Shown piece by piece: positions 4,296 to 55,301 of a stretch of 64,000 nucleotides of DNA (positions are counted from its first letter, which is position 1; each line of letters begins with the position of its first letter). A program made the translations under genes and the position numbers. This DNA comes from Apostichopus japonicus (Eukaryota; Echinodermata; Holothuroidea; Aspidochirotida; Stichopodidae): assembly GCF_037975245.1 (NCBI RefSeq), contig NC_092569.1, forward strand, positions 22,348,168 to 22,412,167, written 5' to 3'. The notes beneath the pieces are model-generated. The model worked only from the letters and a program-made list of their open reading frames with translations, was not told the origin of the DNA and made no database searches.

Positions 4296-11450
<7,155 letters not shown>

Positions 11451-16684: not shown

Positions 16685-16765
16685 ATGTACTGTTATAAAC
16701 TTTATTCGTTACTTCGAGTTTCATTTTGCCTTTGGACAGCCGGCTTCCTCGATTCAAGTAGAACG
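16685..16765 (+). CDS. Gene A exon 1 (signal peptide)
   Basis: 81 nt from ATG to GTAAGT, phase 0. It encodes [20 protein letters not shown], a short polar start and a hydrophobic core. The same exon, damaged, is at 49848. Genes B and C share the FFLWT-type core. Confidence 0.85.
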
Positions 16766-19700
16766 GTAAGTGTATAAAATTTGATATATTCTTTAACGTT
16801 TCCATCATGTTTCATTGAAAATGTTAGATACTAATTCTCATCAATACAGCGCATTTTATTTATTCTACTGACAGACTGTTAATACTTTGTAGTTGCTAAT
16901 TGTCACTTCTTGTTAAATTTAGAGAAAGTTTAAAATAACTATTGAAGTATAATATTCTCAAAATGGTTTAACAATAATTCACACTGAATTAAAATAGAAC
17001 ATTTTTTTTAAATGGATGCTTCGTAAGAAAAGAAATCATCATATGGTGTGCAAATATCTGACATCTTCAAAACCATAAAAACTCACTAATCAGTATTCCC
17101 TTAGTGCAAAGCATATCAATACACATTGAGAGCTAATGAAATGAAATATTTTTTTTTTAAATATTGCTAACAGCACCAGGCGTGTGCTGTAACAGTTGGA
17201 ATATATATATGAAATATCTAACAAGTTAGTGCAGCGTTCAAGTAGACTGAGCACAGAAAATAATTTTATTTGTAAAGATTTGGAACTTTTAAATCCAGAG
17301 GTTGTATTCCTTCACCAGATTTAGTTTCCATATTTAAATGCACAACTAATCTATATGCAATTTATTTCCATTGTCAAAGAAAACAAAAAGTGATTTTGGT
17401 TTTCGGATGAATCACAAAATTGAGTTAAAAAAATATCAACAAAAACTTGAACTGAGCGTTTTCATAACTTTCACTTATTCAAAAATTTAAATTATTATTT
17501 TATTTTAATACGAATGAAATTACGAATTAAATGTAATACTGAACTTAGCAATGAATTTAAAGAAAGTTTACATACTAACTATTCAAGTATGATATTATCA
17601 AAAGGGTTTAACAATAATTTACACTGCATTAAAAAAAATTAAATTAGCAATAAATTTAGAAAAAGTTTAAATAATAACTATTTAGGTATAATATTCTCAA
17701 AAGGGTTTAGCAATTATTCACACTGAATTAAAATAAAACTTATTTTTAAATAGATGCTTCGTAAGTAAAGAAATTATCACATGGTGTGCAAATATCTGAC
17801 ATCTTCATAACCATAAAAACTCACTAATCAGTATTCCCCTAGTTCAAAGCATATCAATACACATTGACATGTAAAGATTTTGAACTTTTAAATCCAGAGG
17901 TTGTATTCCTTCTCCAGATTTAGTATCTATATTTAAATGCACAACCAATCTGAACTCAATTTATTTCCATTGTCAAAGTAAACGAAAAGCGATTTTGTTT
18001 TCATAACTTTCACTTATTCATACCTTTAAATTATTTTTTTATTTTATTTTAATACGAATGAAATTAAAAATTCACAATTGAGTTGTTTACTCCCAGTTTT
18101 AACGATTGCTTAGATTAGTACCGGGCTTTTGAAGTTTCAATGTGATTTAATTTTTGTTTTCAAAAGATTGAAACAACTTATTTTTGAAGAAAAAAATGAT
18201 AGGTAAAGTTTTGGTACATATGAGCAAATAATATAAATGTGGAGAGTTTTTTTTCTATTAAAGCTATACTATATTAATATACAGACCCGCACTCTGTTCA
18301 GATTCCCTGTTTCATGATTTAATTAATCAAAAATAATATCTCAATAGTTTATACACGTATAACTCTTCTCAAACAAAGATATCGTCACATCAAATGAGAT
18401 TTTTCCGAAAAGCTCAAATCAAAAGCAGTTGATCTAGTTGAACGAATAACCTTAAAACTTTCAAATCAGATATCAGATATATTCACATCGGATAGGATCT
18501 TATATCTTATCGAATAACCTTAAAATTTTGAAATCAGTGCTCATTCTTTGTTTGATGCAAAATATATGATATATTTACATCAGATATTACCTATATTGCC
18601 TAAGAACATATTTTTTTCTAACATTTAGCATTTTAAGGTATACTATTAAAATTGGACAGCAAATAAACATTCTTATTAACTATTGTCATCGGCAATCATA
18701 TATTATTCGAAGCCCGACAATTATATTGAACTTTTCATTTTCTCAAAATAAGAACCTCGAAGATTGCGAAAAGTGATCATATGCACTAAAGTGTTATTTG
18801 GAGCTGTTTTTGTCATATTGAATAAACAGTGAGATTTCATTAAAGCAGATTGTTTATAATAGGTTAACACTAGGATATGGTCGTACTTTTCAAGAAGTAT
18901 TCGTCGTTGGAGAACAAAGTGATCCCTTGTAAAACAAGCGCACTGCATTAAGCTCGTTTTATTTCTGTAAACAGAACTACGTTCAGTAGACGAACCTGTA
19001 CTGACTAAAGATATATGAATGTTTTAAACAAAAGTTTTGAAAGAACCATTGTTTTGTTCCATAGTTAATTGCTCGGTGGAAAAAAAAATGTTTAATGTTA
19101 CTCCACACGCTGTAGGGTCACTAGGGTAAAATCAATTGCAAATATTCATATTGTCTTCAAAGTATTATTTAATAAAGTTGAATCGAACTTTTCGGAAATA
19201 GTTATTTGTTAAAGCTTTTCATCGTTCTGCCCAGATCCATGTCAATCTATCCACTTTTACCGCTTACACGCTATCTAAAACATATTTGTTTTCAATTTCT
19301 TGTTAGTCAGTAGAGAGCTGTGACATCTGCTTCATAAACAACGTAATCAATTTAGAATACCTTAAAATAAACTTTTTTCCCCTTACATAAATGATTTTGT
19401 CATTTCGCACGGTATCGGTCGACTAAACAATTTTTATTTTCAAACCTTGAATTTATGGAAAAAGTACCTGCAAATTTGATATCCAAATAAACCATTTACT
19501 TCTCAAGGATTGTTTCATTGATTGGCCATAAAATGTCCAGGTAAACTTTTTTTGATAAATCATCTGTGCATCATAGTAATATTATAGTAAATCATAGTGA
19601 TAAACGAAAATTACATTACAATTGGTAAACCAGGACGTTAAAATAAAATTAGGAACGACGTATGGAAAATACATCACCAAAAATTGCTATACATATATTG

Positions 19701-22700
19701 CTTGATTTTCAAAAGAAAAAAAAAATCACTTTCGTAGTTTGTGTTTAAATAGCAAATATTTTCCTAAATAACATAACTGTATCTATATTTAATAGTTAGT
19801 ACTGGGGTCAGTCTGTCATTCTCCTTTAAATAACACAATAATTTTGTCTTCTTGTGTCAAATAAGCTGCTGAATAAATTTACAATTAATAGTAACTTTTA
19901 ATTTAATAAGTCTTAATGTGCAATTTCACCTAGAGAAGTGTAAAATGGTTACTTTTTTTTTACAACTTTACCTTTGTATTTTGTGCTGATTGTTGTAACT
20001 AATTTTTTAAACACTATTTAAAAGATAGACTGTCCTTTAGGAGAAACAGAAGGATGCAGCGTATATTATATAAATTCATTAAAATGTGTTACCAGACAAC
20101 TCAGTAATAAATAAAGAATCTGAGGAGTCTTCATAAAGTGAACGATTAACGTGTTTAAAGATACTGTGTACCATCGTAGATCGAACCGAAATCAACCCCA
20201 TTCTACATAATGATAGTTGACGGTAAAAAATATACAATATTTATAGTAGTTACATTCTGGTGAGTTAAAGCAAACTATGTCAGTTAATGTTAAATTATTA
20301 GAATAATCACTTTTTCACTAAATTTGTTGATGGTGCTAACTAGCACCAAAATATATATATGACTTATTTTAGGATTAAGTGAAAGCAAAAAGTAGAATGA
20401 TTTATGGGACTGTAAATTGCCAAGATCCTTCGTTTTATAATGTCCAGATCAAAATTTAGGCAAAATATCTTGCTACTGAATATATTGTTCCGAATATGGT
20501 TCAAACAAAATGTTGCATCAAGTTTAGAACTTAGATTGTTCTATCTCGATGAGCTATACATTTCTTGGCAGATATTTTGTATCCGGCAATGTCTATGCCT
20601 GTCTCTTCGAACTGATGTTGTCAAACTCTAAATCTCTAAAAATTAACTGAAAGAAACGGTAAGTCACCGATTAGAAATGATTGAATTCAACTACAATTAA
20701 AATATTCAGCTGCTTAAACAATATACCTAGCATACTCGATCCATTTAATCGTTGTAACATTTGTTTTTCTTGAGTCATAGATATCATTTTGATATCCATT
20801 TATCTAACTCAAACAAAAAGTGTACCAATTTATGTTGACTGTCTTTATACATAAAACAAGTACACACGTATAGCCAAGAACTTTAGCTATTATATGGACG
20901 TTTGGATATTGATAATATTTGTTTTACTAACACGGCCGAACTAATAATTTGACAGGTTGCTTCATGAAACCGAGTGTGTTATAGTAAATAGTTTGTATGA
21001 AACTACAATGAAGAATTGCAGCTTCAGCTTCATCAACTTTGCCAAACAGGAAGGGTCTGGTTTTGGCATGTGTGCTTATTTAGATCCGTTAAATTATTAT
21101 TACAGTGTTGAGGATATTTGTTTTTACAGGGAAGTTGAATCGTCGGATGCAAAGTGGATACACGGTTTGACGTATGTTTGGTGTAGTCTTGTTAATCAAT
21201 TGTTAGACAATGATACCGAAAATAACACACAGCACACCATTGTAATATATCTAGAAATGAGCATATAACAGTATTCGCCGCATATATATAGTTGGCTTAA
21301 TTTGAGTAAATATTGAGTATTTAAGGAAGTTGTAATCTGAGCTATATTTAATTTAAAATGATAAATTAACAATCATTTCACTTCATTCTATCCCTATTCA
21401 AAGTAAACGCAATTTGACAAACCGGGGCGATAACATGCCATTTGTCCGATTGCCTATCTGTTTTATGTTGAAGAATCATTCCTTTCAATTTGATAAAACT
21501 GATCTATTTCTATTATTACAAGGGTTTATTTGCTCTTAAAATTACAAGGCGTCCAATTCCTGAGGGGTGATGCCGTTAGAAATATCGCTTGTTTGAATTA
21601 TTGTATTGTATATTTGTTTGGTAGACTGCGGAAGCTGGAACAAGTGATGCCGCAAACAGTGAAGATGGGCCAAGTGAGTGATTTATACCTTAACTCCTTA
21701 CCATCGAAGCTTATTATAACATGTAGACTTTGTTTCATTCATTCATTTCCCATGCTTATTGTAGAATTAGTGAGGAAACCATGAGTAATATTTCCACAAC
21801 AAGCAAAACTTAGGTATGACCTTTTTCGATTGAAACAAAGTATTACACTGACACCATGTTTTGGCATAACGTTAAAGCATTTAAAACATAGCTAGGAAAA
21901 CGAAATGTTTGTATTAGGATTTATCTCTTACTAAGATTCTTTAAGCATATGTGATTGGTACATGTCTTTGAGAGAATGACAAATAGTTACAAAATACAGC
22001 CTTTGAACGTCAGAGTTTCACAAACTTCTCTTTTCTCTCACTCCCTTGTATATAAAAAACCTTCATAAACTACTGATTTGGAATTTGTTTCAGCCATGCA
22101 GAGCTCAGGTTTCTCATGCCATTAATGTAAATAGATACGTTTTTCAAAGTCACCATATTTGTGTTTTAATTGCTTCTTGGAAGTACGTCAACTAATATTG
22201 AAGATATTGATCACATTAGTTCGATATGTAGTATTATTATTATTTTTTATTAAGTGTATCATAACAGTAAAATATGGTATTTATTCCCTCTTAAACAAGG
22301 CTCTTCAGCATTTTTCTTCTATCAACAATCGACTTATCCGAGAGATTGCAAGGAAGTCCAGGAGCAATGTTCATCTCATAACTCTACCGGTGTCTTCATG
22401 ATCAAACCAGATGGCTATTTAGAACCTTTTGAGGTTTACTGTGATGGTACAGATACATCTGGTGGATGGACGGTAGGTGTATCTTTCATTAGCACTGCTT
22501 CCATTCCATGTTACACTCAATATGTCTGGAGAAACAGTGACCTCACACTTTTTAACTATGTTTCTATTGGTGCGGGTGTGTATAGTCAATTAATGACTCA
22601 GCTACTCTGTAACCATAAGCAGATATTATAACCTTACAGAATAAACCTATTTTGTTTTGTTTCATAATACTTCTTTAGCCTATTCGTATGTAAAGCTATT

Positions 22701-25700
22701 TTATTTGTTTCATAATACTCTTTTTGCCTATTCCTTTGTTAAATCATCCTCTTGGTCCTTCATTTTTAAACTTAGAATAAAAATAGTCAAGAAATTTTCA
22801 ATGTTACAGATTCCTGTTTGGTCAAACTTATCTACAGTTACTGGTAAACCTTTATAATATCAAAAGCTTACTTTCAGTGTGATTGTAAACAGTTTCCAAT
22901 CAATCCGTCTAATTATTGATCAGGTTATTCAACGACGTATTGACGGGTCCATCGACTTTGGTCGTGACTGGGATAGCTACAAGACTGGCTTCGGGTTTTT
23001 ATCTCGGGAATTTTGGCTCGGTAACGAGAAGCTATCTTTCTTGACCAATCAGAAGAAGTATCAACTGGTTATTGACATGACAACATCAAATGGTTCCCTA
23101 ATTCGTGTTTCTTACGATCATTTTCGAATCAGTGACGCCTTCAGCTACTTCAAGTTAGTAAACCTCGGACTGTATTCTGGAGAGACCGGTGAGTATTATG
23201 TTATTGTTAACGCTTGAAAATAACTTAATATGTAAAGAGTTAGACATAATGTTTAAAAATGGCCAGTGTATTCCAATTAAGAATGTAAGTAGATTAGTGT
23301 ATGTACCTGAGACAGCTTTTGCAAGCTCTTGGAAAAATATTTTCCGTAATTTAATGTTCAAGCTTGTACGACCATTGCTCATCAACATCTCCATAAAACT
23401 TATTTCAGTGTTTTCAATCACTTCACTTTATTCACACAGATGTTGTCACATTGTGTCCAACAAACATGGTGTATACAAACTGCAGTACCGCTTGTCAACG
23501 AACTTGTGAAGCTCCAGGGATATGTCAGGATGACGTCTGTACGGAAGTTGAAGCCTGTGTTTGTCGCGATGGATACTTTTTGTTGGGATCAGACTGTGTA
23601 CCTCGTGAACAATGTGGATGTTACGAATCAGAAGGGCAAACAATTGTACCAGTAAGTCGTCTGAGAGTATTTTCCCGAACGCCAATGGCTTTTTCTACAT
23701 TTGCAGAGTCATATCATCATACTTCAATAATTCCAGCGAGTTTTACTCATTGGGTGACATTCATATATCAGTGGCATTGCGTTTTAAATACACAACAATT
23801 GAATTGTTGTCTATTTTTTCCGAATTTATTGTTGTGTTTACTTTTTAGAATGTTATTTTATGTTAAACTCTTTGAGTGTTTATTCATGATATCCAATGTT
23901 AGGATCTATCTGTCTTTGAACAGTTAGAAAAATGCAACATCCTACACACTAAGGTGATTTAAATTATGTCACGGTGTGTTCCAATCAAAGCGTCAACATA
24001 AATTAATGATAGGGAGGGGAAGTGGTAAATACTAGGTATTGCATAGTTTGTGCTAAATGAAAGGCATTGATAAATCTTTGTGTACATATTTTGATCTTCA
24101 GGAAGGCGAGTTCAATGTGAATCCTAGATGTACAAGAAAGGGTGTTTGTACCGACGGACAAATCAGCTGGGATGAAACTTACGCTTGTAGTCCTAATGCG
24201 GTTTGTGACGTTAGGAACGACATAAGACGATGTTATTGTACTGGAGGCTACAGAGGTGATGGTGAAGTATGCGAGAGACCTCCTAAAGATTGTCAGGAAA
24301 TTTATGAGGATGGAACCAGTGACAACGGTATTTACAGAATCGAACCAACCGGCTGGACCGGAGAGGCATTTGAGGTCTACTGTAACATGACTGACGGAGG
24401 AGGATGGACGGTAAGAGAAATAAAGCTTTATTGAATGCGACAATATCCCAGTGGTGTAAATGATATGATTTTATTTTCTGCTGTTCAAGTCACTTCGGTT
24501 ACTACAAAAGTACATTCAAAGTTACGATTGATGTAACGTGTGACACCTCCTTACTTAATTGCAGTTCGTAAAATACATATAAATTATCAAAAAAGCGACT
24601 CATGTTAACTTGTGCTTTGACAATTGTACATATAGTTCTAATTATTTGCTGACATATGTTGTCAGAAGTCAATTATTGCACTCTTTAATTTGTACATTCA
24701 GGTCTTCCAACGCCGTGTGGATGGGACTGAGGATTTCTACCTAGAATGGAACAGCTACAAGCGAGGCTTTGGACATATTGATCACGAGTTTTGGCTAGGA
24801 AATGATAAGCTGTTTTACTTGACCAATCAAAAGAGATATGAAATCAGGATTGATCTTGTGAATAAAGAAGGTGCTCCGTACTACGCAAAATTTGACTTTT
24901 TCAGGATAAATGACGAAAGCGACAACTATCGATTATCCGGTGTTGGAACCTACAGTGGAACCGCAGGTTTGTCAACCTCGATTTCATTCAGTTATTTTCA
25001 AGTCTGGTTTGTTTTGCAATATTTTATAAAAAAAACCAAACAAATGTAACACATTACACGCGCACATTATCAATGAAGAATTCTTTTACAGTGACTCACA
25101 CTTTTTTTTTTATCAATTGACCTGTGGAGCTACTTATAAAATGGTGACAGAGAGGAACTCAAATAAGCCAGACTGCAATTAACAGCTAAAAAAATATCAA
25201 AAATAAGGATGGGACATTAAAATACTTTCACAATAATCTATAGTACCCTGGGAGAAACCTACACAGACTGAAGTAGTTACCTCTACCCTAACGCCCAAGT
25301 TATATGAATTGGTATCGGTTTAGGCCTGTACAATTAAGATTTACTTCTATAAGTTATGTAATACTTCTCGCACTTTTGTATCTCTTCTTGTAGCTAACTG
25401 TGGTCACCAAATATAAACTAAATAAACAAAATATTGTTCAGATTATGTAAGGCAAGTTTAGGTATCATAATGTCGCAATGATAGTTGTGAGTCTGACCGA
25501 TTCTCCGAGCCCATTGATGAAATTACCCAACCATGAGTCATATTCCATAAAATATACAATGTGTTAACGACTATATAATTCACTGTAGTTCCTTCAAGAG
25601 CTCAAAATCATGTTTATCTGCCCTGCTCCTAGAATCCTTGGAAGTTATATTAAATCTCTTGATCTCTTCGTGTAGTATCAATGTCAGTTATTAGTTCACC

Positions 25701-26892
25701 CAATGAGCTGTGCTCTACCTCTTTGGATCACCCAGCTTAAAGTGAAATAGCGAGCTTACTAATGTTGTTCATGTTTTGCACGTTTGCAATTCACATTTAA
25801 ATGACTAGGACGACCATCAACTTATTTGACATTCATCTGCATAAAATGGTTGGGCTTTACATATGAAAAACACCATCATTATCTTATTGTTATGGGTTGG
25901 TCAGAGTGTGTGTTATAAAAATATTTTCTTTGGCATTTGATAAGTCAATCTTCAGAATTGGGTCAACCTGTAAAGACGATAATAAGTAATTAAATTACCT
26001 TGTTAGAAACAAGACAAAAAATGTTGGCTTAACAGTGCCGAACTCAACTTATACAAACACTTTAGTCGTTTTCAGGGGAGGAATAAAAGGATAAATTTTT
26101 TTCTATGATACCGACATTCCTTTCGATGAACCAACAACAGATGAAAACAAATGAAAACAGTAAAATTATTTCTGGCCATATGTATTTTAAGCCAGATATA
26201 AGAGAAAAAATGCCCCAATTCGGTGTTAATAAATGAAATATGGTGGAGAGAAACGTTTTAGCAAGTGACTGACATAATGTTTAGTATGAAGGATAAAATA
26301 ACCAAAAAATAAAAGTATGTGACCTATCTCATAAAGAAATTCATGAATTTTCATAAAATACTAGCCTCCCCACCTTTAACCCAAATTCAGAAATAATAAA
26401 AGCAGGCACTACATATGTAGTGACGGGAAAGACATTATTTAATCCATGTAAACTATTTTATATACTTACCCTAGCATAATAATATAAGTATCAACATAAA
26501 AAGCAACAACACGGGTAACTTTCAATTATATGTAGTGACTAAACTAATATTATCTTTAAAACCAAATTTAAATAATGCTGCCAATTTACTGCTCTCTAAT
26601 TGTTAAGGTAACTAATTTAGATTTTGGGATTTTTTCCTTTACAGATCAACGGAGCAATCCCGATGGTTATGCTCTAACTTATCACAGGAACTATCAGTTC
26701 TCAACAAAGGACCGAGACAATGATGCTTATAGTGGTAACTGTGCGACTTATTATCTTGGTGCCTGGTGGTACAATAATTGCTATTATTCTAACCTGAACG
26801 GTCGCTACGGGCATAGTTACTTTTATTGGTATTACCTCCCAGGAAGCGATAATTACCTCCAATTTGTAGAGATGAAAATTCGTCCAGTCTAA
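16685..26892 (+). CDS. FReD gene A: secreted FReD(partial) - TIL - EGF - FReD protein, intact
   Basis: Eight exons total 1602 nt, encoding 533 residues. Order: signal peptide (1-27), short acidic Ser/Ala linker (28-43), first fibrinogen-related domain missing its C-terminal third (44-189), trypsin-inhibitor-like cysteine-rich TIL domain (190-260), TIL-associated segment plus EGF-like domain (261-about 318), complete FReD (about 319-533). FReD2 has the calcium-loop sequence [12 protein letters not shown] and matches the fibrinogen C-domain signature ([13 protein letters not shown]); it ends EMKIRPV. All junctions are GT-AG and keep the frame. No membrane helix follows the signal peptide, so it should be secreted. 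FReD proteins of invertebrates commonly act as lectin-like recognition molecules; that role is inferred here. Genes B and C are tandem paralogues downstream. Confidence 0.92.
16766..21624 (+). other. Gene A intron 1
   Basis: 4.9-kb intron. It contains a local duplication: about 17010-17340 is repeated at about 17750-17940 (ATGCTTCGTAAG, GGTGTGCAAATATCTGACAT and AAATCCAGAGGTTGTATTCC occur in both). No further exon is recognised. Small open frames such as 18721-18948 and 20957-21268 look like chance. Confidence 0.6.
21625..21673 (+). CDS. Gene A exon 2 (linker)
   Basis: 49 nt, phase 0 to phase 1, donor GTGAGT. It encodes [16 protein letters not shown], a polar linker. It corresponds to the 46-nt exon 2 of genes B and C (SAQQTSDGS), which supports the call despite its short length. 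Confidence 0.75.
22300..22472 (+). CDS. Gene A exon 3 (FReD1, N-terminal part)
   Basis: 173 nt, phase 1 to phase 0. It reads [20 protein letters not shown], then [20 protein letters not shown] and SGGWT: the standard start of a fibrinogen-related domain. The acceptor TTAAACAAG is poor in pyrimidines but conserved in frame. Confidence 0.93.
22924..23188 (+). CDS. Gene A exon 4 (FReD1, middle part)
   Basis: 265 nt, phase 0 to phase 1, donor GTGAGT. It reads [36 protein letters not shown], then [11 protein letters not shown] and YSGET. A typical FReD would continue into the calcium-loop exon from here. Instead the next exon encodes TIL. Confidence 0.95.
23440..23651 (+). CDS. Gene A exon 5 (TIL domain)
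   Basis: 212 nt, phase 1 to phase 0. It reads [35 protein letters not shown] and REQCGC. Its ten cysteines fit the trypsin-inhibitor-like fold. TIL domains occur as protease inhibitors and inside large mucin-like proteins; inhibitory activity cannot be judged here. Confidence 0.9.
24102..24410 (+). CDS. Gene A exon 6 (TIL-linked segment, EGF-like domain, FReD2 N-terminal part)
   Basis: 309 nt, phase 0 to phase 0. It begins [16 protein letters not shown], as often follows TIL domains. An EGF-like module follows ([23 protein letters not shown]), then [20 protein letters not shown] and [13 protein letters not shown], the start of FReD2. One exon therefore carries two domain types. Confidence 0.92.
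24702..24966 (+). CDS. Gene A exon 7 (FReD2, middle part)
   Basis: 265 nt, phase 0 to phase 1, donor GTTTGT. It reads [48 protein letters not shown] and TYSGTA. It is parallel to exon 4 in length and phase, showing that the two FReDs share an exon plan. Confidence 0.95.
24967..26644 (+). other. Gene A intron 7
   Basis: 1.7-kb AT-rich intron. No repeat, exon or alternative terminal exon recognised. Confidence 0.55.
26645..26892 (+). CDS. Gene A exon 8 (FReD2 C-terminal part and stop)
   Basis: 248 nt, phase 1, ending TAA. It contains [14 protein letters not shown] (calcium loop), [18 protein letters not shown] (fibrinogen signature) and EMKIRPV. Relative to gene B it has about seven extra residues (QRSNPDG) at its start; the dead exon at 45.77 kb shares this insert. 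Confidence 0.94.
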
Positions 26893-32056: not shown

Positions 32057-32134
32057 ATGATCAGCAAGTTTGATTCAATCTTCCAATTTTTATTTTTCCT
32101 TTGGACAACTAGCTGCCTCGTTTTTCGTGAATCG
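32057..32134 (+). CDS. Gene B exon 1 (signal peptide)
   Basis: 78 nt from ATG to GTAAGT, phase 0. It encodes MISKFDSIFQFLFFLWTTSC, a clear hydrophobic secretion signal. Confidence 0.88.
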
Positions 32135-35100
32135 GTAAGTTCTAGTACTTTTATCATTTTTAATTAAATCCAGCATAAAAATCAAAGTCAATTTTGTTTT
32201 AGTGCCTTCCAATGTAGCACAGAGTAAATATAGAAAAAAACTTAAACGCATTTCATTATTAACCTTCCTCGGTCATATGTCGTAGTATATATTTCAATGT
32301 ACTTGCTCGGTAACAGAATATGAAACTAAAGTTTTGATTGTTCAAAAGATGATATAAGATATTGGAAATGGAGACATCATAATTCCTCAAATTCAGTACA
32401 ATTTTCATAGTTGGTATATTGTAGTGATCTGAAACACGATTGTCTGTAACGCTTCAATGTCCGTAACAAATAGTTCAACAACAAAAATAAACGCAAAGGA
32501 TATTAAAGTGTTTGGAGTAAACGTTCAAGTAGATGAAGATATACTTCTTTCAGATTAATGAAATACTTAAAATTAATGTTAATCTCCCACAAAAGAGTCC
32601 AAATTTAAAGCAAAGTAAAAAAAAAATTCAAATCTTGAATAGCAATTCTCCTTTTGACTTTATTTTAAAGTAAAGTTTTGATTGTTCAAAAGAGACATTC
32701 ATAATTCCTCAAATTCAGTACAATGTTCATCTTTTGGAATCCTGTATTTGTCTGTATCAAAGTTAAAATTATGGTCTGTGTCGCTTCAAAAGTGCGTGAC
32801 AAATAATTCAACAAAATAATAATAAACGCAAAGGATCTTTCAGTAATTGGAGTCAACGTTGGAGTAGATTCAGGTATACCTTTTTCAGATTAAATTAAGT
32901 ACTTTCAGGGTTATTTTAAACTCCCCACAAAAGAGTCTCGAAATTGAAACAGAAGGCAAGCAATCAAATCTTGAACTGCAAGTCTCCTTTTGACTATATT
33001 TTAACGAATCAAGAAAAAAAAGAGAGATTCGAAAATCATTAAATATTATATTTTTGGCAAAGATATTGAAATTAGATTTAAATTAAATTAAATCTAATGC
33101 TTTCAAGTTTTTTATGTTTTCCATTTATCTCAGAAATGAAAAGTGTTAACTTTTAAACTTTCTGCAATGTGTTGAAGAAGTCACTAGTTGTATGTAAAGT
33201 AAAGGTGTAAGATGTAAGATCGAATAAGAGGTATGGGATTTTTCTACTTTTTTAAATGCCTTTAGCCTCTGAGGAAGAGCCTGCTAGGATCGAAACGTCA
33301 GGCAAACTTACTTTTACACATTCGATTACACAGGCTCTCTAGTGGATAAGCAGTTTGCTAACAGTTGTATTATATTTTGAAGATAGTTTATTGTAATATT
33401 AATAGTCACTTAGTAACGCTCTCGAATCATTTAGGACACAAACATGTAGTAAAACATTCAAAGTTCCATAAATATCATAGGTATAAAAGATGTATAAAAT
33501 ATTAAGCTCTTGTTAAGTTAGTAATTCATAATCCTGTATTCCTCACCTATAACTTTACAACTGCAAATTAACCTGTTAATGGTATATCTTCCTCACTGGC
33601 ACAAATTCAGAACTTTCATGTGTTAATAAAAGACGTGCTAAACTTGTTAATATGATTTTAATATTAATGATAGCAGACACAATACAGACTGTCATAAATG
33701 CAAGTTTTACCGATAGTATAAATCAAATACGGTTCTTTCAATTATATTAATAGAAACGTAATAGCTAAAATAAACATGCCCATTCTTTGAATGGATATCT
33801 TTAGTTTCTTAGCTTTATCATAATTAAGGACAAAAGAATGTTTTTACTTTATATTACTTAAAGTTTTCATCATGTTACTTCAATTCACATTGAAACCTTT
33901 GATTTATTATAATGCACCAAATTTTGTATTCCGATGCTAAAATATTAGATCTTCTTTAGTTAAAAGCAATCTATGAATTTCAATGAAGCAATGAACACAT
34001 AACAAAGTTAAATTTTAATTGGGTAACCAATTCAGCGTAAAATCTACATGATTTACCGAGGATAAAGAAAAATAAGTTAATGCCAGACGTAAAAATCTCT
34101 GGACTTTTGTCCAATTTGCCAAATTTAAATGAGAGAAGGCAAATAAACATGAAATATATATCGTTTCAATATGCAAAGACCTTTTTGCAAAGCCTAACAT
34201 GAAATTTCAAGCAACGTATTAAATATTTCTTAAGATTTGCAGAATCTGTCGAGCATTTGTAGTTAACCCATAGATGCATTTTTATATCCTTCAAAGATTG
34301 CGAAAAAAAAGCAAATCAGTCATAATGCACTTCGATTTGGCGAGATAATGAGTCAAATAATTCCACCTTCTAAACTTTGAAAGCCATTGGCATATCGTTC
34401 TTCTCAATTGCTTCCTCATTTAATGTGTTGCAGTCTTCCAAAAGCTATACAACTCTTTTAAGATAATACACGGATAAGAGAAATCGAAAAGTAAATAAAA
34501 CATGTCTGAATTGAAAATAAAATAATAGACCAGCATACCTATTTTTACATCTTCGTCATATGATATATTAAATCTTATTTTGTGTGTAGCTTCAAGAATG
34601 TTCAAGAAAGATTTTCCTATAATAACTCAAACGAAACAAATTGCAAAAACCGAAATCAATGTTTTGTAAAAAGGACCCTTTCTTTGTCACTTAAAATTAA
34701 GGTTAGGTGACTAAAAATTGTTTTTTTATTAAAACATTTTTCGGCACCAATAGTTTGTCAAACATAGAACATTCTCGTCAATATGAGTTTTTTTGGAGGA
34801 AATAATCAATTCCTAGTTAGTCGTGGTAATGCTCGGTATCGCCTCATAACGTTATAACGTCATTATATTTTCAACTATTAAGTGCCTGTGAGACTCGCTT
34901 CACCAGTGCAAAGCTATGTCAATCGTAGGTAAACTGCATATTACGACCTTCGTTTCAGGACAAAAAATTAAGAAACGGACGAAATGTGTACTGTCAAATT
35001 AATTACTAAGAGTAATACCTTCCACTATATACTTGTAAGATAAAGTATTCCGCAACGTAATATGCAACTATGTTGATGTAGGCCTATATACTTATTAATA

Positions 35101-37552
35101 TTTGTTCTTACTTTCATTTATCTACAACAGTATGTGGTCTGTGGTTATTTTCGCGTATTGTACCACAATTCCCTACACTGTTAAGATTTTTTTTATTTAC
35201 AAACAAAAATCAGGAGATCCTAAGTAAATGTAAAACATTGGTTTGTACTCGAAAATAAAGAAAACACATATTTTGCTTAATTAAAATGAAATTTGAAAAT
35301 CATTACTTTATGAGTATTGATTATAGCTCATACAAAGTAATATGATTCGCGATCAATATATATTCTTGGTTTAACAGATGGTAGCCGATTCCATCAAATG
35401 TCTTATAAAAGTGTTAAGTCCTAATTCCTTGCGGTTTCGCAAAATATAACTTCCGATAGCTTTTCTCGACTACTTACTTAAAGTAAAAGTTTCCGGGATA
35501 CAGGATACATTTGGAAAGACCTTATATCCAACTAAATAGGCTGGGACTTTTTTAAATTTCGAAAATTCAACATTGTTGATTTGATCTTCTTTTTGTTTAT
35601 GTCAGACTCTTAATAATTAAGATCACAGCGACGAGATGTCTGTAATTTAACACTGAAAGTGTATTGCTGAACATTGATACTTAATATATTGACGATACGT
35701 TTGTACATATAGCTACCTCTGTTTATTCTTGTTAAGATTCGCTCGGCGATATTATTAGTTATATGTATACGTTTCTTAAGCGAGTAAGTTATAGTAACTT
35801 TAAAAAGGCACCATGTTACTTAAAATTCATCACATCTTACAGATACACCAATCCCATACTCGTAGATAAATAACTTTTATGTCATTAGCTATTATTTAAA
35901 TAACAACACAAATAAAGTGCTACTTAGAAAAAATATCGAACAACCGTAAGATAAAAAAATCAAGGAAAGTCTAATGCCATTTCTTGTTGATTTTGCTATT
36001 TTCATAAAAATATCTTACCTAAATTTTCCTCTAAAATTTAATACGCCATTTTCGATTGTAAAAAAGTATTTCCTTTTCAAAATAGACCGAAATTCCGGAG
36101 CAATGTTCTGTTTTTTTGTTGAAAAATACAATGATAACAATTCATTTAAAGGGAATATCACGTAAAGAATTTTCTTTAAAAAATGTCGTAATTTATTTAT
36201 TCTGTAATCATTAGCTAAAAAAATCTATACTTGAATTTGCTCTTTCTGGTTCCGTTGTCACTTTTTCAATAAAAGTGTTGATATGTTTGTACAACAAAAC
36301 CTGAAACTACGTGTGCATTGTTCAATCTTCTTCACTTTATTGATTTCGTCATGTTTAACAAAGCTGGTACGACAATGTTAAATCCTCTCCCTCCCAACAC
36401 CTCCACCCCTTCCCAAAAAATATTTTAGTTAAGTTTTCGAAAGTAAATTAAAAACCTTATTAGAAATGATCAGGATTTAACTATAGTTACTATAATGATC
36501 TTGTTGCATCGTAGATATAAAACTTTTACCGTGTTTTAACGAAATAAATGTATTTTCGCTTTAAATGTCTCGTCAATTTGTTTCTCTTTAATATAAAATT
36601 TCGAATGAAAAAAGATTGAGATTACTCTTTGTTTGGAAAGAACGACAATGCCTCGATCAATAATTGTATTGTCAAGCAGAAAGGTTTTAAGATTGGGAAA
36701 TGCAAGTTAGACTTGTAGAAGGAAGAGTTATCGTTGTAAAAACGTAAACACAACTGAGTAGAATCATTTTGATTCTAGTCTACACATGTAATGTGCTTTT
36801 TGATTCATGATCATTCGAGTGTTGTAGGATGAGCCCTCGTCGGATTTATGAGTATTTATTATTTGTAGTGGAGTTAGGCTGTTTAACTGAACTCTGTTTA
36901 GTGTTAACCTATAGCATGTTTCTTATAACGGTATATTACCAATATCTGTATTAACACCTCTAAATAGATTCAAACACCCCATGCCTTGGCGATACATATT
37001 TTCACTCTCCCCCTCCCGTTTGTTTGAGAGAGGAATGTGTGAGATTGTTAGCGAAAATATTTTGAAATGGACAACTTGAGGATAGATTAAAGCGAGGCGA
37101 GTGATATGTGTCCATCATCCGTCCCCCTCTCGTTCCTCTTATTTCAATTGGAACACATTTTCTTTCTCATTTTAAATGAACCAATTTCAATAATTTCAAT
37201 TTTCAAGAAAAAGATTGTAGCACCCATATAGTAACCGACATCTTCGCCACCCCCAAATCTATCCAACCGGCAATCACTACTTGTTTTGTTAATTGATCTA
37301 TTCAAGTACACCCAATAAGTATTCCCAGTAATACTTCTCAACGTAAATGGGACACATATTTCACATTGACTCGGAAATATAATGAGAACTTGTTTTCAAA
37401 AAAGTTTGAAATCTTTTTCAGAGCTTGATATCCAGAGGTCACTGATTCGAATCATGTTTTATCCATAAACTTCTTTGCTCTATCCCATTGTTTAAAACAA
37501 CAAAGTCACATTCCTGTTATTTATTTACATATATGAATTTTTCTTCGGTTAG
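32135..37552 (+). other. Gene B intron 1
   Basis: 5.4-kb intron matched by the gene C intron. It includes a two-copy tandem repeat of about 335 bp (32325-32660 and 32665-33005) sharing AAAGTTTTGATTGTTCAAAA, TTCCTCAAATTCAGTACAAT and AATAAACGCAAAGGAT; gene C has the same pair (55490-56150). No coding exon is visible. Confidence 0.65.
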
Positions 37553-37598
37553 AGTGCCCAACAGACAAGTGATGGATCTTCTAATGAAAAGATATTAG
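37553..37598 (+). CDS. Gene B exon 2 (linker)
   Basis: 46 nt, phase 0 to phase 1, donor GTGAGT. It encodes SAQQTSDGSSNEKIL, a polar linker. It is conserved at 60452-60497. Confidence 0.82.
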
Positions 37599-38039
37599 GT
37601 GAGTGATGCTTACCCCTCTTGATTCCAAACATGTAATTTAAATAAAATTTAAACTCTTGTTACAATATACTAATCATGTAAACAATGCCTGGAATATATA
37701 CACAGGCAATAGGGCGTGATTTGCGGGGGTTTGTCTGAAGTATTAGTGGACGAGAATGATAGAGGAGTTAAGGTGTTTTTTGGCATTCAAATAGAAATCT
37801 ATCCTCACAGTTAAACAAAACAGTCGATATAATTCATGTCAGAATTGAAAGTATAGTGTAAAGTACGCAGTGATCGGTTGTGCTATTAAAGTAACATTTT
37901 CTACAAAACTACCCGTGTGAGGCCTTTCGAATAGTTGAAATTAAGAACGTGTTGTATGTTATATATATAAACCAACATAAAAAATGCAAACTTAAAAAAA
38001 AATGTAGACAAGTTTTTTTTTCATTCAATTGCTTCATAG

Positions 38040-38212
38040 GTTCATCATCATTTTTCTTCTATCAACCATCGACTTATCCGAGAGATTGCAGAGAAGTTCA
38101 GGGGCAATGTTCATCCCATAACTCTTCCGGTGTCTTCGTGATCAAACCAGATGGTTATCTGGATCCATTTGAGGTTTACTGTGATAACACCGACAGTTCC
38201 GGTGTATGGACG
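38040..38212 (+). CDS. Gene B exon 3 (FReD1, N-terminal part)
   Basis: 173 nt, phase 1 to phase 0. It reads STYPRDCREVQGQC, GVFVIKPDGYLDPFEVYC and DSSGVWT. The highly conserved GGWT motif is changed to GVWT. Confidence 0.93.
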
Positions 38213-38472
38213 GTATGTCTTTGGTTTTTGCTCTTATATCAACAATTTTCATACTGAAACAATAATGTTCACATCAGCTGGAAGAGTAGTAACGATGTTA
38301 GTTACTTCGGTGACCATGTTATATATTTGTAAGTTACAAGATGGTGGTAAGAAAAAATACGTTCTCTTTTCATTGAGTAAAGATCAAGACGGATATGCTG
38401 GATGCCAAAATTTAAAGCATCGAATGAAGATCAGTGACTCACAAACCATTTCGGTAACGACTCTGTCCATAG

Positions 38473-38740
38473 GTAATACAAAGGCGTACCGACGGGTCCA
38501 TCGATTTCCGGCGCGGCTGGGACAGCTACAAGTCTGGCTTCGGGTTTCTCTCTCATGAATTCTGGCTCGGCAACGAGAAGTTGTCTTTCTTGACCAACCA
38601 GAAGAAATACCAACTGGTGATTGAGATAACCACATCAAACGGTACTTTAATCCGGGTTTCTTACGATCATTTCCGTATAAGTGACGCATTCAGTCACTTC
38701 AAGCTGGGCAACCTCGGCAATTATTCTGGAGAGAATACTG
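38473..38740 (+). CDS. Gene B exon 4 (FReD1, middle part)
   Basis: 268 nt, phase 0 to phase 1. It reads [50 protein letters not shown] and YSGENTG. The first 100 bp were easy to miss because the frame has no ATG there. Confidence 0.95.
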
Positions 38741-39058
38741 GTGAGTTATCACGAATAAATTAGATATAAACGCAATATTATACCCACATTTCTTAAAAGG
38801 CTTTAATATATGTGAAGATGTATCGTTTCGTGACGTCGTCAAACATTTCATAAGATAACAGATATGCAGGGTCATCGGGGGAATATCACTGATAAACCTC
38901 TCTGGACCCATTTGGTACATCCCTCTATATTCAACCATCGTTTCGATAAAATAATATATCTGAACTTCACTTATCAAACACTTAGTTTACTTCATTAGGT
39001 TACATACATTCCTAGTAACATTAATGTAATAATAATTCCGATTAATTTTATCTTACAG

Positions 39059-39270
39059 ATGCTATAACATTCTGTCCCGGCAATATGGACATTGATGACT
39101 GCAGTACCGCGTGTCAACGAACTTGTGAAGCTCCAGGAATCTGTCAGGATGAGGTCTGTACTGATGGTGAAGTCTGTTTTTGTCCCGATGGATTCTTCAT
39201 GAAGGAATCTGACTGTGTAACTCGTGAACAATGTGGATGTTACGTATCAGAAGGACGGACGATCGTAGCA
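39059..39270 (+). CDS. Gene B exon 5 (TIL domain)
   Basis: 212 nt, phase 1 to phase 0. It reads [36 protein letters not shown] and REQCGC. Same length and cysteine pattern as gene A exon 5. Confidence 0.92.
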
Positions 39271-39442
39271 GTAAGTACAGGAGCCATCCATTAAAGAAAT
39301 ACAAAACGACTCTTTACTTTAATGTACAAATTGTGCGTTACTACTTTGTTATATATAACTTTAATCTCAATGTAAATAATTGCTACAAACTGGAGTAAGA
39401 GATGACTGCATATTGTGATATCAACAACCATTTTTCTGACAG

Positions 39443-39757
39443 GAAGGTGACTTTTTCGTGAATGCTGGATGTACCAGAAAGGGTGTTTGTACTAACGGTG
39501 AGGTCATCTGGGATGAAGGTTACGCATGCAGCCCTAACGCAAACTGTGAAGAAAGAAATAACATAAGACAATGTTATTGTGATGATGGCTACGGAGAAGA
39601 CGGTGAAACTTGTACTTCAGTGACTCCAAAAGATTGTCAGGAAATTTATGATGATGATAGTACCAGAAACAACGGTATATACAGAATCAAGCCGACCGGA
39701 TGGACAGGGTCAGCATTTGAGGTATACTGTAACATGACCGACGGAGGAGGATGGACC
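39443..39757 (+). CDS. Gene B exon 6 (TIL-linked segment, EGF-like, FReD2 N-terminal part)
   Basis: 315 nt, phase 0 to phase 0. It reads EGDFFVNAGCTRKGVC, YACSPNANC, CYCDDGYGEDGETC, then KDCQEIYDDD, GIYRIKPTGW and [13 protein letters not shown]. Two codons longer than in gene A. Confidence 0.93.
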
Positions 39758-40205
39758 GTAAGTGTTATAGCCTACGATAGGCACGGAGATTACATTATGA
39801 ACTATATAGTTCATTAGTAGATATTGCACTGGAATGCATTTTTCTTTAATGTAAGACTTACTTTCATCGTAACTATTCGTTTCACAGATCTATGTCCTAT
39901 GTCGGATTGTTGGATATTTTCTTTGTCATTGTTTTTAAAGATATTCGTGTTTATATACAAGAACATTTGACGTTGTACCACAGTCTATTGACATTGGTAT
40001 TCTTTACCTCCATGATTGAGAAAGTTTTGTTTATTCTACTTATTAACTCATTATATTGCCAGGTTGAAATTTTTTACGTATTAAATTACCTTAAAAGGTA
40101 GTTCATTTTGAGAAAAAGATATTTCAGATTTCACACCCGGGAGGCCACTAATATTATTCATTTTTGTGTTATTAACTACATTTTTTTCATTTTGAAATCT
40201 TTAAG

Positions 40206-40470
40206 GTGTTCCAACGACGTGTCGATGGTAGTCAGGACTTCTACCTTCGATGGAACAGCTACAAGCAAGGATTTGGAAATTTAAGTATTAATTTTTGGCT
40301 CGGAAATGATAAACTTTATTACTTGACCAACCAAAGGAGATATGAAATCAGAATCGACTTAGTGAACAGATACGGAGCTCCATACTACGCCAAGTTTGAC
40401 TTTTTTAGGACAAACGACGAAAGCGACAACTATCGGTTATCCGGTGTTGGGACCTACAGTGGAACATCAG
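40206..40470 (+). CDS. Gene B exon 7 (FReD2, middle part)
   Basis: 265 nt, phase 0 to phase 1, donor GTTTGT as in gene A. It reads [45 protein letters not shown] and TYSGTS. Confidence 0.95.
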
Positions 40471-41881
40471 GTTTGTAGTCCACACATCTCCTTTAATACT
40501 AAATGTGGTATTTCTGCATAACTAGATAATGAGACACAACCAGGTTATCGTTTCATCGATACTACCTCTCTCTCTAGAAATAGATTATTACTTCAGTTAA
40601 GTATAGTATATATTGACATCATCTTAAGGATAAAGAAATAAATAACAAGGTAAGAAGGCCAAGCAGATGAAAGATAGATTATATTTGTAATTAATAGCCT
40701 GAGAATGGAAATTGTATCAAAATAGGAAACTACCTACATTTGTCTGTTATAGTTCTACAGTCCTGTCATAATTGTTTAATACCTTCAAAATTGCACTGGC
40801 TGGAAACTAATTATAAGCATCGTTCAACCATTAGTTAGAATCAACGACTAACTGATAAATACAGGCAGGAAGATAATGCTGTCTGTACCACCTATTAGGA
40901 TAAGGCAAAAGTCAGTCCAAAGAGGAAACAATACACACATTTGAACTTAAAATTCATAGTATTCAAGTTATCAATATACAGACGAGCGTTAGTGTTGTCT
41001 TCGTTCGTCTTTAAAAGTAGTAAATAACTGACTGACATACTCAGAACATTTAGAAATACTCCACATACCTTTACATTTGTTAATTTCTCTGAGACGAATT
41101 CTGGGAGTGGTAGAGGGAGCTTTGAACGGTAAGATATATTGCGCAAAACTTTTTTTTTTACCAAAGTCAATAATATAAGTAGAAAATAAAACATGCAGTA
41201 TTGACATTTCACATAACGCTAACAATACATATGCCACAATTATGTGAATTTATTTCATCACAATGCATACGTGTAATTACACCTCTTATACATTGGTGTT
41301 CAATAACAAACCACGAACGAATGTAGACACCAATTCTAGTGTGATTATTTAATAGAGCAATTACAAAACAACTGAATCTTACTATGGAAACAAATATAAG
41401 CATTGTGTACATAGTTTATTAAGGTCTATATAAAATGACGATGTTCGTATTTGTGATCAGCTAGATATATATTTAACAGCTTGATGGTGATCCTCGGTGA
41501 TCAGATGTCTCTTAGAGATAAACACTGTAATGTAATTTTATAGTATGGTGTTCAATAACAGTAAGAAGTATGGTCATAGCCTATGTGTAAATCTGACTAC
41601 AATAAAATATATATCAACAACGTATACCATTTATATATTACCCAGAATACAACGACCCAATAACAAAGAAAAAGCACTGCAACATTTTGTTTACCCTGAA
41701 ACTAGATTTACAAATGTGCATATCACAATTTAAGTTTAAATATTTCAGCAACCAGACTGAGTATATGTTAGTGCGATTTAATTACAGAAAATGGAATATA
41801 CAAGGTTAGTCATGTAGCAAACTTACAACAGTTATTTATATGATTGTTGTGTTTCTTTTAATTTGATTCTTTTTTTTCCAG
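40471..41881 (+). other. Gene B intron 7
   Basis: 1.4-kb intron. No alternative terminal exon with FReD similarity was found that could bypass the stop in exon 8. Confidence 0.55.
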
Positions 41882-42111
41882 GAGATGCTCTAAGTTATCA
41901 CCTGAACCAGCAGTTTACAACAAAGGACCGAGACAATGACCCTTTTAGTTAAAACTGTGCTCTTCGTGAATTTGGTGCATGGTGGTACCATAATTATTGT
42001 TCTGAATCTAACCTGAATTGTTTCTACGGGTATAAGTACCTTCATTGGCTTCACCTTCCCGGAGATTATTTTTATGTTAAATTTACAGAGATGAAGATCC
42101 GCCCTATCTAG
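41882..42111 (+). pseudogene. Gene B exon 8 (FReD2 C-terminal exon, interrupted)
   Basis: The acceptor TTTTTTTTCCAG is good. The frame reads GDALSYHLNQQFTTKDRDND, PFS, then TAA (41950-41952). The rest still aligns (FGAWWYHNYCSESNLNCFYG, EMKIRPI, TAG at 42109-42111). Three base changes separate this TAA from the gene A GGT codon, so the order of events is unclear. Confidence 0.88.
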
Positions 42112-43890: not shown

Positions 43891-43896
43891 GAACGC

Positions 43897-44289: not shown

Positions 44290-44359
44290 TAATTCTCAGC
44301 TATAATGAGAGTGACAAAATACCGCCTGTAGGGACTTGGGACTTACAGTGGAGCAGTAG
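44290..44359 (+). pseudogene. FReD middle-exon remnant
   Basis: The end of a FReD2-type middle exon. DNA aligns with NDESDNYRL and GTYSGTAG of genes A and B (AATGAGAGTGACAAA, then GGGACTTACAGTGGAGCAG), with small indels, followed by GTGGGT at the donor position. The upstream part of the exon is missing. Confidence 0.7.
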
Positions 44360-45764
44360 GTGGGTAACATACTACATATAAATGATTTAACTGCTTCTGA
44401 GTTGCAAAAATATTTTCTTTCCTTAAGTAACTTTAGGCTTGGTTACACTATCGGATTACAACATCTAAAAAAATATATATGATATGCATATCTCACACTG
44501 AGCTTATCGAGATTTCGAGAGATTTATGTAGCAAGCTGTTTGATATATAAAATTTGTAGCAGTATTTTTTCTTTAGCATTATAACTTACAATGTCAGCAA
44601 AATAAAATAGAAAGACAAAATAATAACAAGCTAGACTAGCGGTTATTTTCGTGAATAACAATAACCTGGTAATATGTGGATCCCAGCAAGAAAGAGGATT
44701 GAAATTTATAAAGTTATTAACCAAATTCATGGATTGAAACTAAATAAGCAATACCTCCTCTCTATTACTTACAATACCTAGAAGAAAGGTTGGGTTACTA
44801 TAATGATTTGATTTAAAAAAGAAATACAATAATGAAATGGTTTTGAACTTTGTTCATATATTAACAGTAAACAATAGTTCATAATAGCATTGAAAGGAAA
44901 TTCATAGTGAAAACTGCATTATTACAATTCACAGGAAAATATATCAAGGGGTGACTTCCTAAACACCGACAAACGAGAATTTAAAAAAAAATCCGAACGT
45001 ACAACTTGTTATATTAATAAATTACAGACACATTAGTAAAGATAACACGTTTGTGACTCTCCGACCTTCGTCCCACGGATAAATTGGTAGTAAAAATCAT
45101 CCAAACTACCAATAAATGCTGAACAGAAGGGATTTGCGCTATTGCATGTATATTCCCAATGCACAGTAACGCCATATTGTATTTAACTGTAATCGTATCA
45201 AGCGGTTAATTGAATTTCTATTTATAAAATGCTATAAAGTTAAGAGAAAAAAACCTTCCCGGCAAGCACTTGATGCGTTCAACAGTTTATTTGGCATTCT
45301 GTTACCAATTCAAAAGCTGGTCATTTCTTACCAATGTCAGTTGCTTACAAATATAACAAAAATTTTGAACAACTGCGGTAATTATTTCATAGCTATATGC
45401 TACATGCTTCTGAAACTGTATTAAATAACGAGGCAAGTAAAAGTACGGTAAATATAATAATTGGAAGTTTTTTAAGCTCAATTCTTAGTAGTAATTATTA
45501 TTTTATGGGTATTGATACCAGTTTAGGAATGCAAATATCACCAAACTGAAGATCAATACCAGAAATGGTGAATAAGAATAAGTAAAATATAGAAATTCTG
45601 CAAACCCAAAACATTATTCAGCTTTATTATTGTAAGAAAGCAAGCCATACTCCTGCCCTCTCTCTCCCTATGAACTCCTTTGTCAGCTGGTATACACACA
45701 ACCGTAAGTACGTTGAACCGACTAACTTATATGTTTCCCTATATCACGTGCTATGTTTCATTCC
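44360..45764 (+). other. Sequence between dead FReD exons
   Basis: Former intron of a dead FReD gene. AT-rich, nothing else recognised. Confidence 0.45.
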
Positions 45765-55224: not shown

Positions 55225-55301
55225 TGATCAGCAAGTTTGATTCAATCTTCCAATTTTTATTTTTCCTTTGGACAACTAGCTGCCTCGTTTTTCGTGAATC
55301 G
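55225..55301 (+). CDS. Gene C exon 1 (signal peptide, possibly frameshifted)
   Basis: ATG followed by MISKFDSIFQF-type sequence, almost identical to gene B exon 1, then GTAAGT. By my coordinate count the T-rich stretch near 55255-55265 lacks one T, leaving 77 nt and putting exon 2 out of frame. A sequence or counting error is possible. Confidence 0.6.

What the first reader, a model, noticed from the sequence alone, without database searches (positions are those of the whole stretch)
16685..26892. A FReD - TIL - EGF - FReD protein whose first FReD lacks its C-terminal third
The sequence shows FReD1 encoded by two exons (N and middle parts) and then, at the phase-1 boundary where the calcium-loop exon normally follows, a TIL exon instead. 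FReD2 has all three parts. The same plan is in gene B, so it is stable. I know of no standard family with this order. FReD1 lacks the calcium loop and the usual ligand pocket, so it may serve as a structural or multimerising unit while FReD2 binds ligand.
Basis: partly seen in the sequence, partly recalled or inferred. Interest (0 to 1): 0.72.

Follow-up and report, generated by a model that had tools for sequence, protein, structure and literature searches.

The report
FREP with a shortened first fibrinogen domain
An animal gene encodes a fibrinogen-related protein in which the first of two fibrinogen domains lacks the third that normally grips a target, and its sequence has been closely guarded since this gene and its neighbours split, so it is probably a working part and not a leftover.

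Summary
Gene A is real: eight GT-AG exons, one 533-residue frame. Pfam reads its pieces as Fibrinogen_C 2-130 of 221, TIL with weak TILa/EGF_3, then Fibrinogen_C 2-220. No third FReD exon was found in intron 4 of gene A, B or C. FReD1 ends near the border of the central and the ligand-binding (P) subdomain.

Corrections to the finding. Gene B has the same exon order, but its last exon has an in-frame stop, so it does not prove the plan stable. Gene C has lost TIL and EGF by an in-frame deletion and carries a second FReD1 middle exon. The middle resembles the TIL-TILa unit of FCGBP.

FReD1 is constrained: A/B dN/dS 0.09, like FReD2 (0.12), below TIL-EGF (0.34). Genes A, B and C share an odd third cysteine there. 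I favour a pocket-less structural or oligomerising module; exon 4-to-8 splicing is the main rival. Multi-FReD proteins with incomplete FReDs are printed for Anopheles: a new variant of a known kind. Species, RNA, structure and the rest of the genome are untested.

The parts
16685..16765 (+). gene A exon 1: start codon and hydrophobic leader (signal peptide inferred)
   Evidence: no signal-peptide predictor was run
21625..21673 (+). gene A exon 2: short linker, 49 bp
   Evidence: 46-bp exon at the same place in B and C
22300..22472 (+). gene A exon 3: FFFYQQSTY tail and FReD1 N part (A subdomain), with the extra Cys
22924..23188 (+). gene A exon 4: FReD1 middle part (B subdomain); last coding part of FReD1
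23189..23439 (+). gene A intron 4, 251 bp: no calcium-loop/P-subdomain exon found
23440..23651 (+). gene A exon 5: TIL domain (phase 1 in, phase 0 out)
24102..24410 (+). gene A exon 6: TILa/EGF-like stretch followed by FReD2 N part
24702..24966 (+). gene A exon 7: FReD2 middle part
26645..26892 (+). gene A exon 8: FReD2 third part (DRDND loop, Cys pair, EMKIRPV end) and stop
32057..42111 (+). gene B: exons 32057-32134, 37553-37598, 38040-38212, 38473-38740, 39059-39270, 39443-39757, 40206-40470, 41882-42111; same order, stop in the last exon
41950..41952 (+). in-frame stop TAA in gene B last exon
55224..63696 (+). gene C, open to the window end: exons 55224-55301, 60452-60497, 60938-61110, 62350-62617, 62927-63084, 63429-63696
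62927..63084 (+). gene C fused exon: first five codons of the TIL exon joined in frame to FReD2 N part; about 541 bp (B 39073-39613) missing
63429..63696 (+). gene C second copy of the FReD1 middle exon, in a direct duplication with an offset of about 1.08 kb, 97.7% identical over the 886 bp aligned before the window ends
44320..45979 (+). remains of another FReD copy: weak exon-7 tail (44320-44352, E 0.10, with a stop) and an exon-8-like piece that changes frame (45777-45872, 45884-45979)
49416..49943 (+). orphan copy of gene A upstream region and exon 1 (89% over 528 bp), with an in-frame stop; donor GT kept but its context changed (GTTGGT for GTAAGT)

Best explanation
Gene A encodes a probably secreted, cysteine-rich fibrinogen-related protein. 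FReD2, the complete domain at the C-terminus, is the binding head: it has the calcium loop and P subdomain. FReD1 keeps only the A and B subdomains and acts as a pocket-less structural unit. Because the P exon is missing, FReD1 also lacks the last strand that in other FReDs is inserted in the B-subdomain sheet. It therefore should have an open strand slot and, in all three genes, an odd third cysteine. The most likely role is to hold chains together, by accepting a strand from another chain (or from its own FFFYQQSTY tail) and by an interchain disulphide. The TIL-TILa/EGF unit is the spacer between the two. Shown: exon order, no P exon found, constraint on FReD1, cysteine count, calcium-loop letters in FReD2. 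Inferred: secretion, open slot, oligomerisation, ligand binding.
For: Single open 533-residue frame with GT-AG borders. FReD1 matches Pfam profile 2-130/221 at 135.8 bits, near the 148.5 bits of the same part of FReD2. A/B dN/dS: FReD1 0.09 (bootstrap 0.05-0.17), FReD2 N+M 0.12 (0.06-0.22), TIL-EGF 0.34 (0.20-0.57), e8 0.54 (0.23-1.28); A/C FReD1 0.08. Full-length fibrinogen gamma (3ghg_C) aligns with FReD1 residues 14-135 at 151-276; ten more residues bring the end to about 286, which is 312 in precursor numbering (offset of 26 recalled), where PMC7659954 (passages) puts the border of the central and C-terminal subdomains. The same passages say that the central strand of the central sheet comes from the C-terminal subdomain and can be pulled out without compromising the structure; the authors propose this for polymerisation in fibrinogen storage disease. 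PMC5928061 (passages) says the C-terminal strand of Angptl3 packs between strands 3 and 4. Cysteines: FReD1 three at positions 16, 23 and 47 in A, B and C; TIL-EGF eighteen in A and B; FReD2 of A four. FReD2 keeps DRDND and the Cys pair.
Against: No RNA or protein evidence. Gene B, the only other gene of this plan in the window, has a stop in its last exon, and gene C has lost TIL-EGF, so the exact plan is intact once in the window. The dN/dS values rest on few genes; dS is about 1.3 in the FReD1 middle exon (A/B, A/C). Other pairs are less extreme: B/C FReD1 0.23, C first against second middle exon 0.38, and B/C FReD1 N has four nonsynonymous and no synonymous changes. Low values would also follow if FReD1 were used in an isoform with exon 8. 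FReD2's pocket differs from FIBCD1: His415 is Tyr and Tyr431 aligns with Phe (alignment, residues named, numbering counted by me), so a ligand is not predicted.
Confidence: 0.45

Rival explanations
1. Alternative splicing. Exon 4 and exon 7 both end in phase 1 with the same base of the split codon, so exon 4 can join exon 8 and skip the TIL, EGF-FReD2N and FReD2M exons, giving an ordinary single, complete FReD. The long form would be one of two isoforms, and FReD1 would be conserved because it is the body of the short form.
For: Exons 5-7 together are 786 bp, a multiple of three. The joined exons 3-4-8 score as a full Fibrinogen_C, 211.1 bits, 2-220/221, close to FReD2 itself (222.1 bits). Exon 3 to exon 7 would also stay in frame. 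Low dN/dS of FReD1 is explained equally well.
Against: By blastn the introns flanking exons 5 to 7 show no alignable sequence between A and B beyond 2-6 bp, whereas regulated exons often have conserved flanks (general knowledge). Frame compatibility alone is weak evidence.
Confidence: 0.25
2. Cassette insertion without new function. A canonical FReD gene (exons 3-4-8) received a phase 1-1 cassette (TIL, EGF-FReD2N, FReD2M) between its middle and last exons, so the last exon now completes FReD2 and leaves FReD1 short. FReD1 is tolerated and does little.
For: The phase 1-1 symmetry of exons 5-7. Gene C shows such units being copied: its fused exon (158 bp) plus the second FReD1 middle exon (268 bp), 426 bp, is again a 1-1 unit next to a direct duplication.
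Against: A passive remnant should not hold dN/dS at 0.09 in A/B and 0.08 in A/C. The insertion may well be the origin; it is the 'does little' part that the selection result speaks against.
Confidence: 0.15
3. Annotation or assembly artefact: a missing P exon, or two genes read as one.
For: The paper on Anopheles FREPs suspected misannotation for some truncated FBG domains because the missing part lay nearby (PMC1242226, passages). Genes B and C contain duplications and damage.
Against: Here the DNA was searched directly: intron 4 is 251, 318 and 309 bp in A, B and C and no P exon was found. The exon 4-TIL neighbourhood is the same in A and B although their introns no longer align by blastn. 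Exon 1 as query gave no match between exons 4 and 5.
Confidence: 0.05

Closest known systems
Anopheles gambiae multi-FBG FREPs with truncated FBG domains (PMC1242226, passages)
   Same: Several FBG domains in one chain, most of them not full, many cut at the C-terminus; clustered genes
   Different: No TIL or EGF spacer is mentioned in the passages seen; the authors suspected misannotation for some truncations
FReM, EGF-like plus partial FBG, Biomphalaria glabrata (PMC7588048, passages)
   Same: EGF-like region with an FBG domain lacking the C-terminal EMKIRE-like motif
   Different: One FBG and no TIL in the passages seen
Sea cucumber FREPs: tandem cluster of 21 in Apostichopus japonicus (PMC5638244, passages); FREP-A of Parastichopus parvimensis (named in PMC2702171, passages)
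   Same: Clustered FREP genes
   Different: Domain orders are not given in the passages seen; the species of this window is unknown to me
Tenascin-R and FIBCD1 FReDs
   Same: Among the best solved-structure relatives of FReD2 (Tenascin-R 2.5e-54, FIBCD1 3.5e-49)
   Different: No fn3 match in gene A; gene A has seven residues (QRSNPDG region) that Tenascin-R and FIBCD1 lack after the middle part
TIL-TILa (E) units of FCGBP and von Willebrand factor
   Same: Middle region aligns over residues 5-117 with FCGBP (whole-chain E 3.9e-27) and over 6-77 with VWF (1.2e-4)
   Different: No VWD or C8 match accompanies it at E 0.1

Membership tests
Fibrinogen_C / FReD, FReD2 | A, B and P subdomains over the whole profile | tested here: met
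   2-220/221, 222.1 bits
Fibrinogen_C / FReD, FReD2 | calcium-loop letters DxD and the P-subdomain Cys pair | tested here: met
   DRDND and NCA...NNC aligned with Tenascin-R and FIBCD1; binding itself not tested
Fibrinogen_C / FReD, FReD2 | acetyl pocket as in FIBCD1 (Cys414-His415 backbone, Tyr431) | tested here: inconclusive
   Cys kept, His to Tyr, Tyr431 aligns with Phe beside a Tyr
Fibrinogen_C / FReD, FReD1 | A and B subdomains | tested here: met
   2-130/221, 135.8 bits
Fibrinogen_C / FReD, FReD1 | P subdomain and C-terminal inserted strand | tested here: not met
   profile match ends at 130; no such exon found in intron 4
TIL domain | Pfam TIL at or above its cut-off | tested here: met
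   32.2 bits, cut-off 24.5, in the whole protein
TILa / EGF_3 | Pfam score at or above cut-off | tested here: inconclusive
   middle piece alone: TILa 23.2 of 27, EGF_3 27.4 of 28.5, overlapping; in gene B EGF_3 22.1 and no TILa row
Tenascin | FN3 repeats | tested here: not met
   no fn3 row for gene A at E 0.1; gene C gave fn3_2 at E 0.016, 15.8 of 27 bits, with no stretch passing
Ficolin | collagen-like stretch before the FReD | tested here: not met
   no collagen-repeat row at E 0.1 (COLFI, the fibrillar collagen C-terminal domain, appears weakly on FReD2); no Gly-X-Y run by eye
Mollusc-type FREP (IgSF + FBG) | IgSF domain | tested here: not met
   no Ig row for gene A at E 0.1
Oligomeric FREP by FReD1 | interchain bonding through FReD1 | not testable with these tools
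   only the odd cysteine count is seen

The most novel reading that the evidence does not exclude
FReD1 is a natural strand-acceptor version of the fibrinogen domain: by dropping the P exon a gene family made an A-B module whose sheet has a vacant central slot, which polymerises chains by donor-strand exchange and a free cysteine, while one terminal FReD binds the target. Gene C, where FReD N and middle exons follow one another in frame with no P exon up to the window end, would be a growing chain of such acceptors. This would be a physiological use of the strand pull-out proposed for human fibrinogen storage disease.
Probability: 0.12. Interest if true: 0.68.

Novelty: new variant of a known kind. 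Interest (0 to 1): 0.42.

Why it matters
FReDs are common recognition domains of animal immunity and matrix. A P-less FReD under constraint as strong as a complete one suggests that the A-B body has a use of its own apart from ligand binding. It makes two things testable: whether the inserted C-terminal strand is dispensable for folding in nature, and whether FREP families diversify by adding or losing phase 1-1 exon cassettes, as genes A, B and C of one 64-kb stretch suggest. If the exon 4-8 splice is real, one gene makes a plain and a compound FREP from the same exons.

Tried and rejected
Searched the window's own genome for other Fibrinogen_C genes: all 14 requests to the genome search were unanswered because the machine was busy, so copy number, the continuation of gene C past 64000 and the species are open. 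A scan of viral contigs with the TIL-EGF-FReD2 part found no relative. Structure prediction of the spliced protein was not tried, because the tool states that it takes only proteins that the DNA gives letter for letter, and a spliced product is not one stretch.

Rejected: two separate genes; FReD1 as a decaying relic; a hidden P exon in intron 4; tenascin, ficolin and IgSF-FREP membership. Corrected while checking: I first took gene B's last exon to have lost seven codons, but Tenascin-R and FIBCD1 lack the same seven residues, so gene A is the longer one there and this is no damage; and I first noted the orphan exon 1 as having a dead donor (note), but its GT is kept in a changed context. Nine paper searches; PMC11452194 and PMC13228809 (passages) gave nothing on this domain order.
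Full report
What is there. Gene A was rebuilt from the DNA: eight exons with GT and AG borders, phases 0, 0, 1, 0, 1, 0, 0, 1 at entry, 1602 bases including the stop, 533 residues. Pfam finds two Fibrinogen_C stretches, TIL, and weak overlapping EGF_3 and TILa matches in the whole protein; given as pieces, FReD1 covers profile 2-130 of 221 and FReD2 2-220. The 'EGF' is better called a TILa/EGF-like stretch: exon 5 and the first part of exon 6 together align with the TIL-TILa units of FCGBP (whole-chain E 3.9e-27, residues 5-117 of 131) and, over residues 6-77, of VWF (E 1.2e-4), while the last part reads as EGF_3 just below its cut-off.

Is the missing third real? The e8 protein finds three places in the window at E below 0.05: 26644 (gene A), 41881 (gene B) and 45777-45979 (two pieces in different frames). 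In intron 4 of gene A it finds nothing at E 10; in intron 4 of B and C the best hits are E 0.15 and 0.63, short and unconvincing. By blastn genes A and B align only over exons; five of the six larger exons are bracketed to within 2-6 bp, and the e8 block begins 24 bp inside the exon. tblastx adds two short pairings in intron 1. This comparison of diverged copies is good evidence for the exon borders without RNA.

Where FReD1 stops. Against full-length fibrinogen gamma (3ghg_C), FReD1 residues 14-135 match 151-276, and ten residues remain, so the end lies near 286 (an extrapolation). PMC7659954 (passages) gives the subdomains as 169-217, 218-312 and 313-437; 312 is 286 if the 26-residue signal is subtracted (recalled). 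FReD1 is thus about the A and B subdomains without P. The same passages state that the central strand of the five-stranded central sheet is supplied by residues 407-416 of the C-terminal subdomain and that this strand can be pulled out without compromising the structure. PMC5928061 (passages) describes the C-terminal strand of Angptl3 packing between strands 3 and 4. FReD1 lacks that strand.

Is FReD1 a relic? It does not look like one. By pairwise Nei-Gojobori counts, A against B, FReD1 has dN/dS 0.09 (143 codons, bootstrap 0.05-0.17), FReD2 N and middle 0.12 (131 codons, 0.06-0.22), TIL-EGF 0.34 (130 codons, 0.20-0.57), exon 8 0.54 (73 codons, 0.23-1.28). A against C gives 0.08 for FReD1 and 0.23 for FReD2 N. 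Against: B/C FReD1 is 0.23, the two middle exons of C 0.38, and the FReD1 N exon of B and C differs by four nonsynonymous and no synonymous changes. Few genes are compared, dS in the middle exon is about 1.3 for A/B and A/C, and B and C are near copies of each other. FReD1's Pfam score over its part is 135.8 bits and that of the same part of FReD2 148.5.

Gene B. It has the same eight exons, but its last exon has TAA at 41950-41952, one P-subdomain cysteine shifted by a residue and one cysteine added. The exon is seven codons shorter than A's at its start, but so are Tenascin-R and FIBCD1, so this is not damage. Its dN/dS of 0.54, with an interval that includes 1, fits loss of constraint in that exon. 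As the DNA stands gene B cannot make a complete FReD2, so it does not show that the plan is stable, though it shows that the order is older than the A/B split.

Gene C. Start exon, linker, FReD1 N and FReD1 middle are as in B. Then about 541 bp (B 39073-39613) are missing: the first five codons of the TIL exon run in frame into the FReD2 N part, so TIL and EGF are gone. A direct duplication with an offset of about 1.08 kb, 97.7% identical over 886 bp before the window ends, places a second FReD1 middle exon after FReD2 N. The frame is open to the window end, 330 residues, with two Fibrinogen_C stretches and no TIL or EGF row at E 0.1. The duplication could be an assembly or haplotype effect; the copies differ by 11 mismatches and one gap.

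How it most likely works. FReD2 has the calcium-loop letters and the P subdomain and is the likely binding head; the ligand is not predicted, since pocket letters differ from FIBCD1. FReD1, without a pocket and without the inserted strand, is most likely structural. Its odd third cysteine, at the same place in A, B and C and without a counterpart in FReD2, and its expected vacant strand slot point to chain-chain contact. The FFFYQ tail just before FReD1, kept in A, B and C while exon 2 differs between A and B, might instead fill the slot in cis. These last steps are inference. The chief rival is splicing of exon 4 to exon 8, which is in frame and would make a full FReD (211.1 bits); without RNA it cannot be excluded and it would explain the constraint too.

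Comparison with what is known. In Anopheles, 25 of 53 FREP genes (24 in another sentence of the paper) were reported with truncated FBG domains, and some proteins hold two or three FBG domains, mostly not full (PMC1242226, passages); the authors thought some were misannotations. Biomphalaria has a partial EGF-FBG protein (PMC7588048, passages). Apostichopus japonicus has a tandem cluster of 21 FREP genes, and its FREPs rise in visceral regeneration (PMC5638244, passages). The sea star footprint paper shows TIL/TILa with VWD and C8, and the word fibrinogen does not occur in its main text (PMC9382459, passages). The tenascin paper reports many FReD proteins but no tenascin-like protein in two sea urchins (PMC11401434, passages). 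The order FReD(short)-TIL-EGF-FReD was not seen in the listings of searches (listed 20 of 44, 5 of 7, 20 of 70, 5 of 5, 11 of 13, 15 of 19 and 15 of 72 papers) nor in the passages read; subscription papers and protein-architecture databases were not searched.

Verdict. A real, functional-looking gene, a new variant of a known kind, with a constraint result that makes the shortened FReD worth study. Interest 0.42.

Noticed in passing
60938-64000 (gene C): FREP gene with TIL-EGF deleted in frame and a second copy of a FReD middle exon, running off the window end
   Followed up: partly
44320-45979: Remains of another FReD copy: weak exon-7 tail with a stop and an exon-8-like piece that changes frame
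   Followed up: partly
49416-49943: Orphan exon 1 with its upstream region, 89% like gene A over 528 bp, with an in-frame stop and a changed donor context
   Followed up: partly
26645-26670 (gene A exon 8): Gene A has seven residues after the FReD2 middle part that gene B, Tenascin-R and FIBCD1 lack; the broken copy at 45777 has a similar start
   Followed up: no
7944-10634, minus strand: SRCR (49.2 bits) and WSC (32.7 bits) open stretches, perhaps exons of a receptor-like gene next to the FREP cluster
   Followed up: no
13922-16217: Tandem array, period 89, 25.8 copies, 93% matches, just upstream of gene A
   Followed up: no
61263-61860: Tandem array, period 85, 7 copies, inside intron 3 of gene C, beside inverted repeat arms of about 80 bp near 61943-62121
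   Followed up: no
43844-44122, plus strand: Open stretch that looks by eye like the C-terminus of a LINE reverse transcriptase; no Pfam match at E 0.01
   Followed up: no
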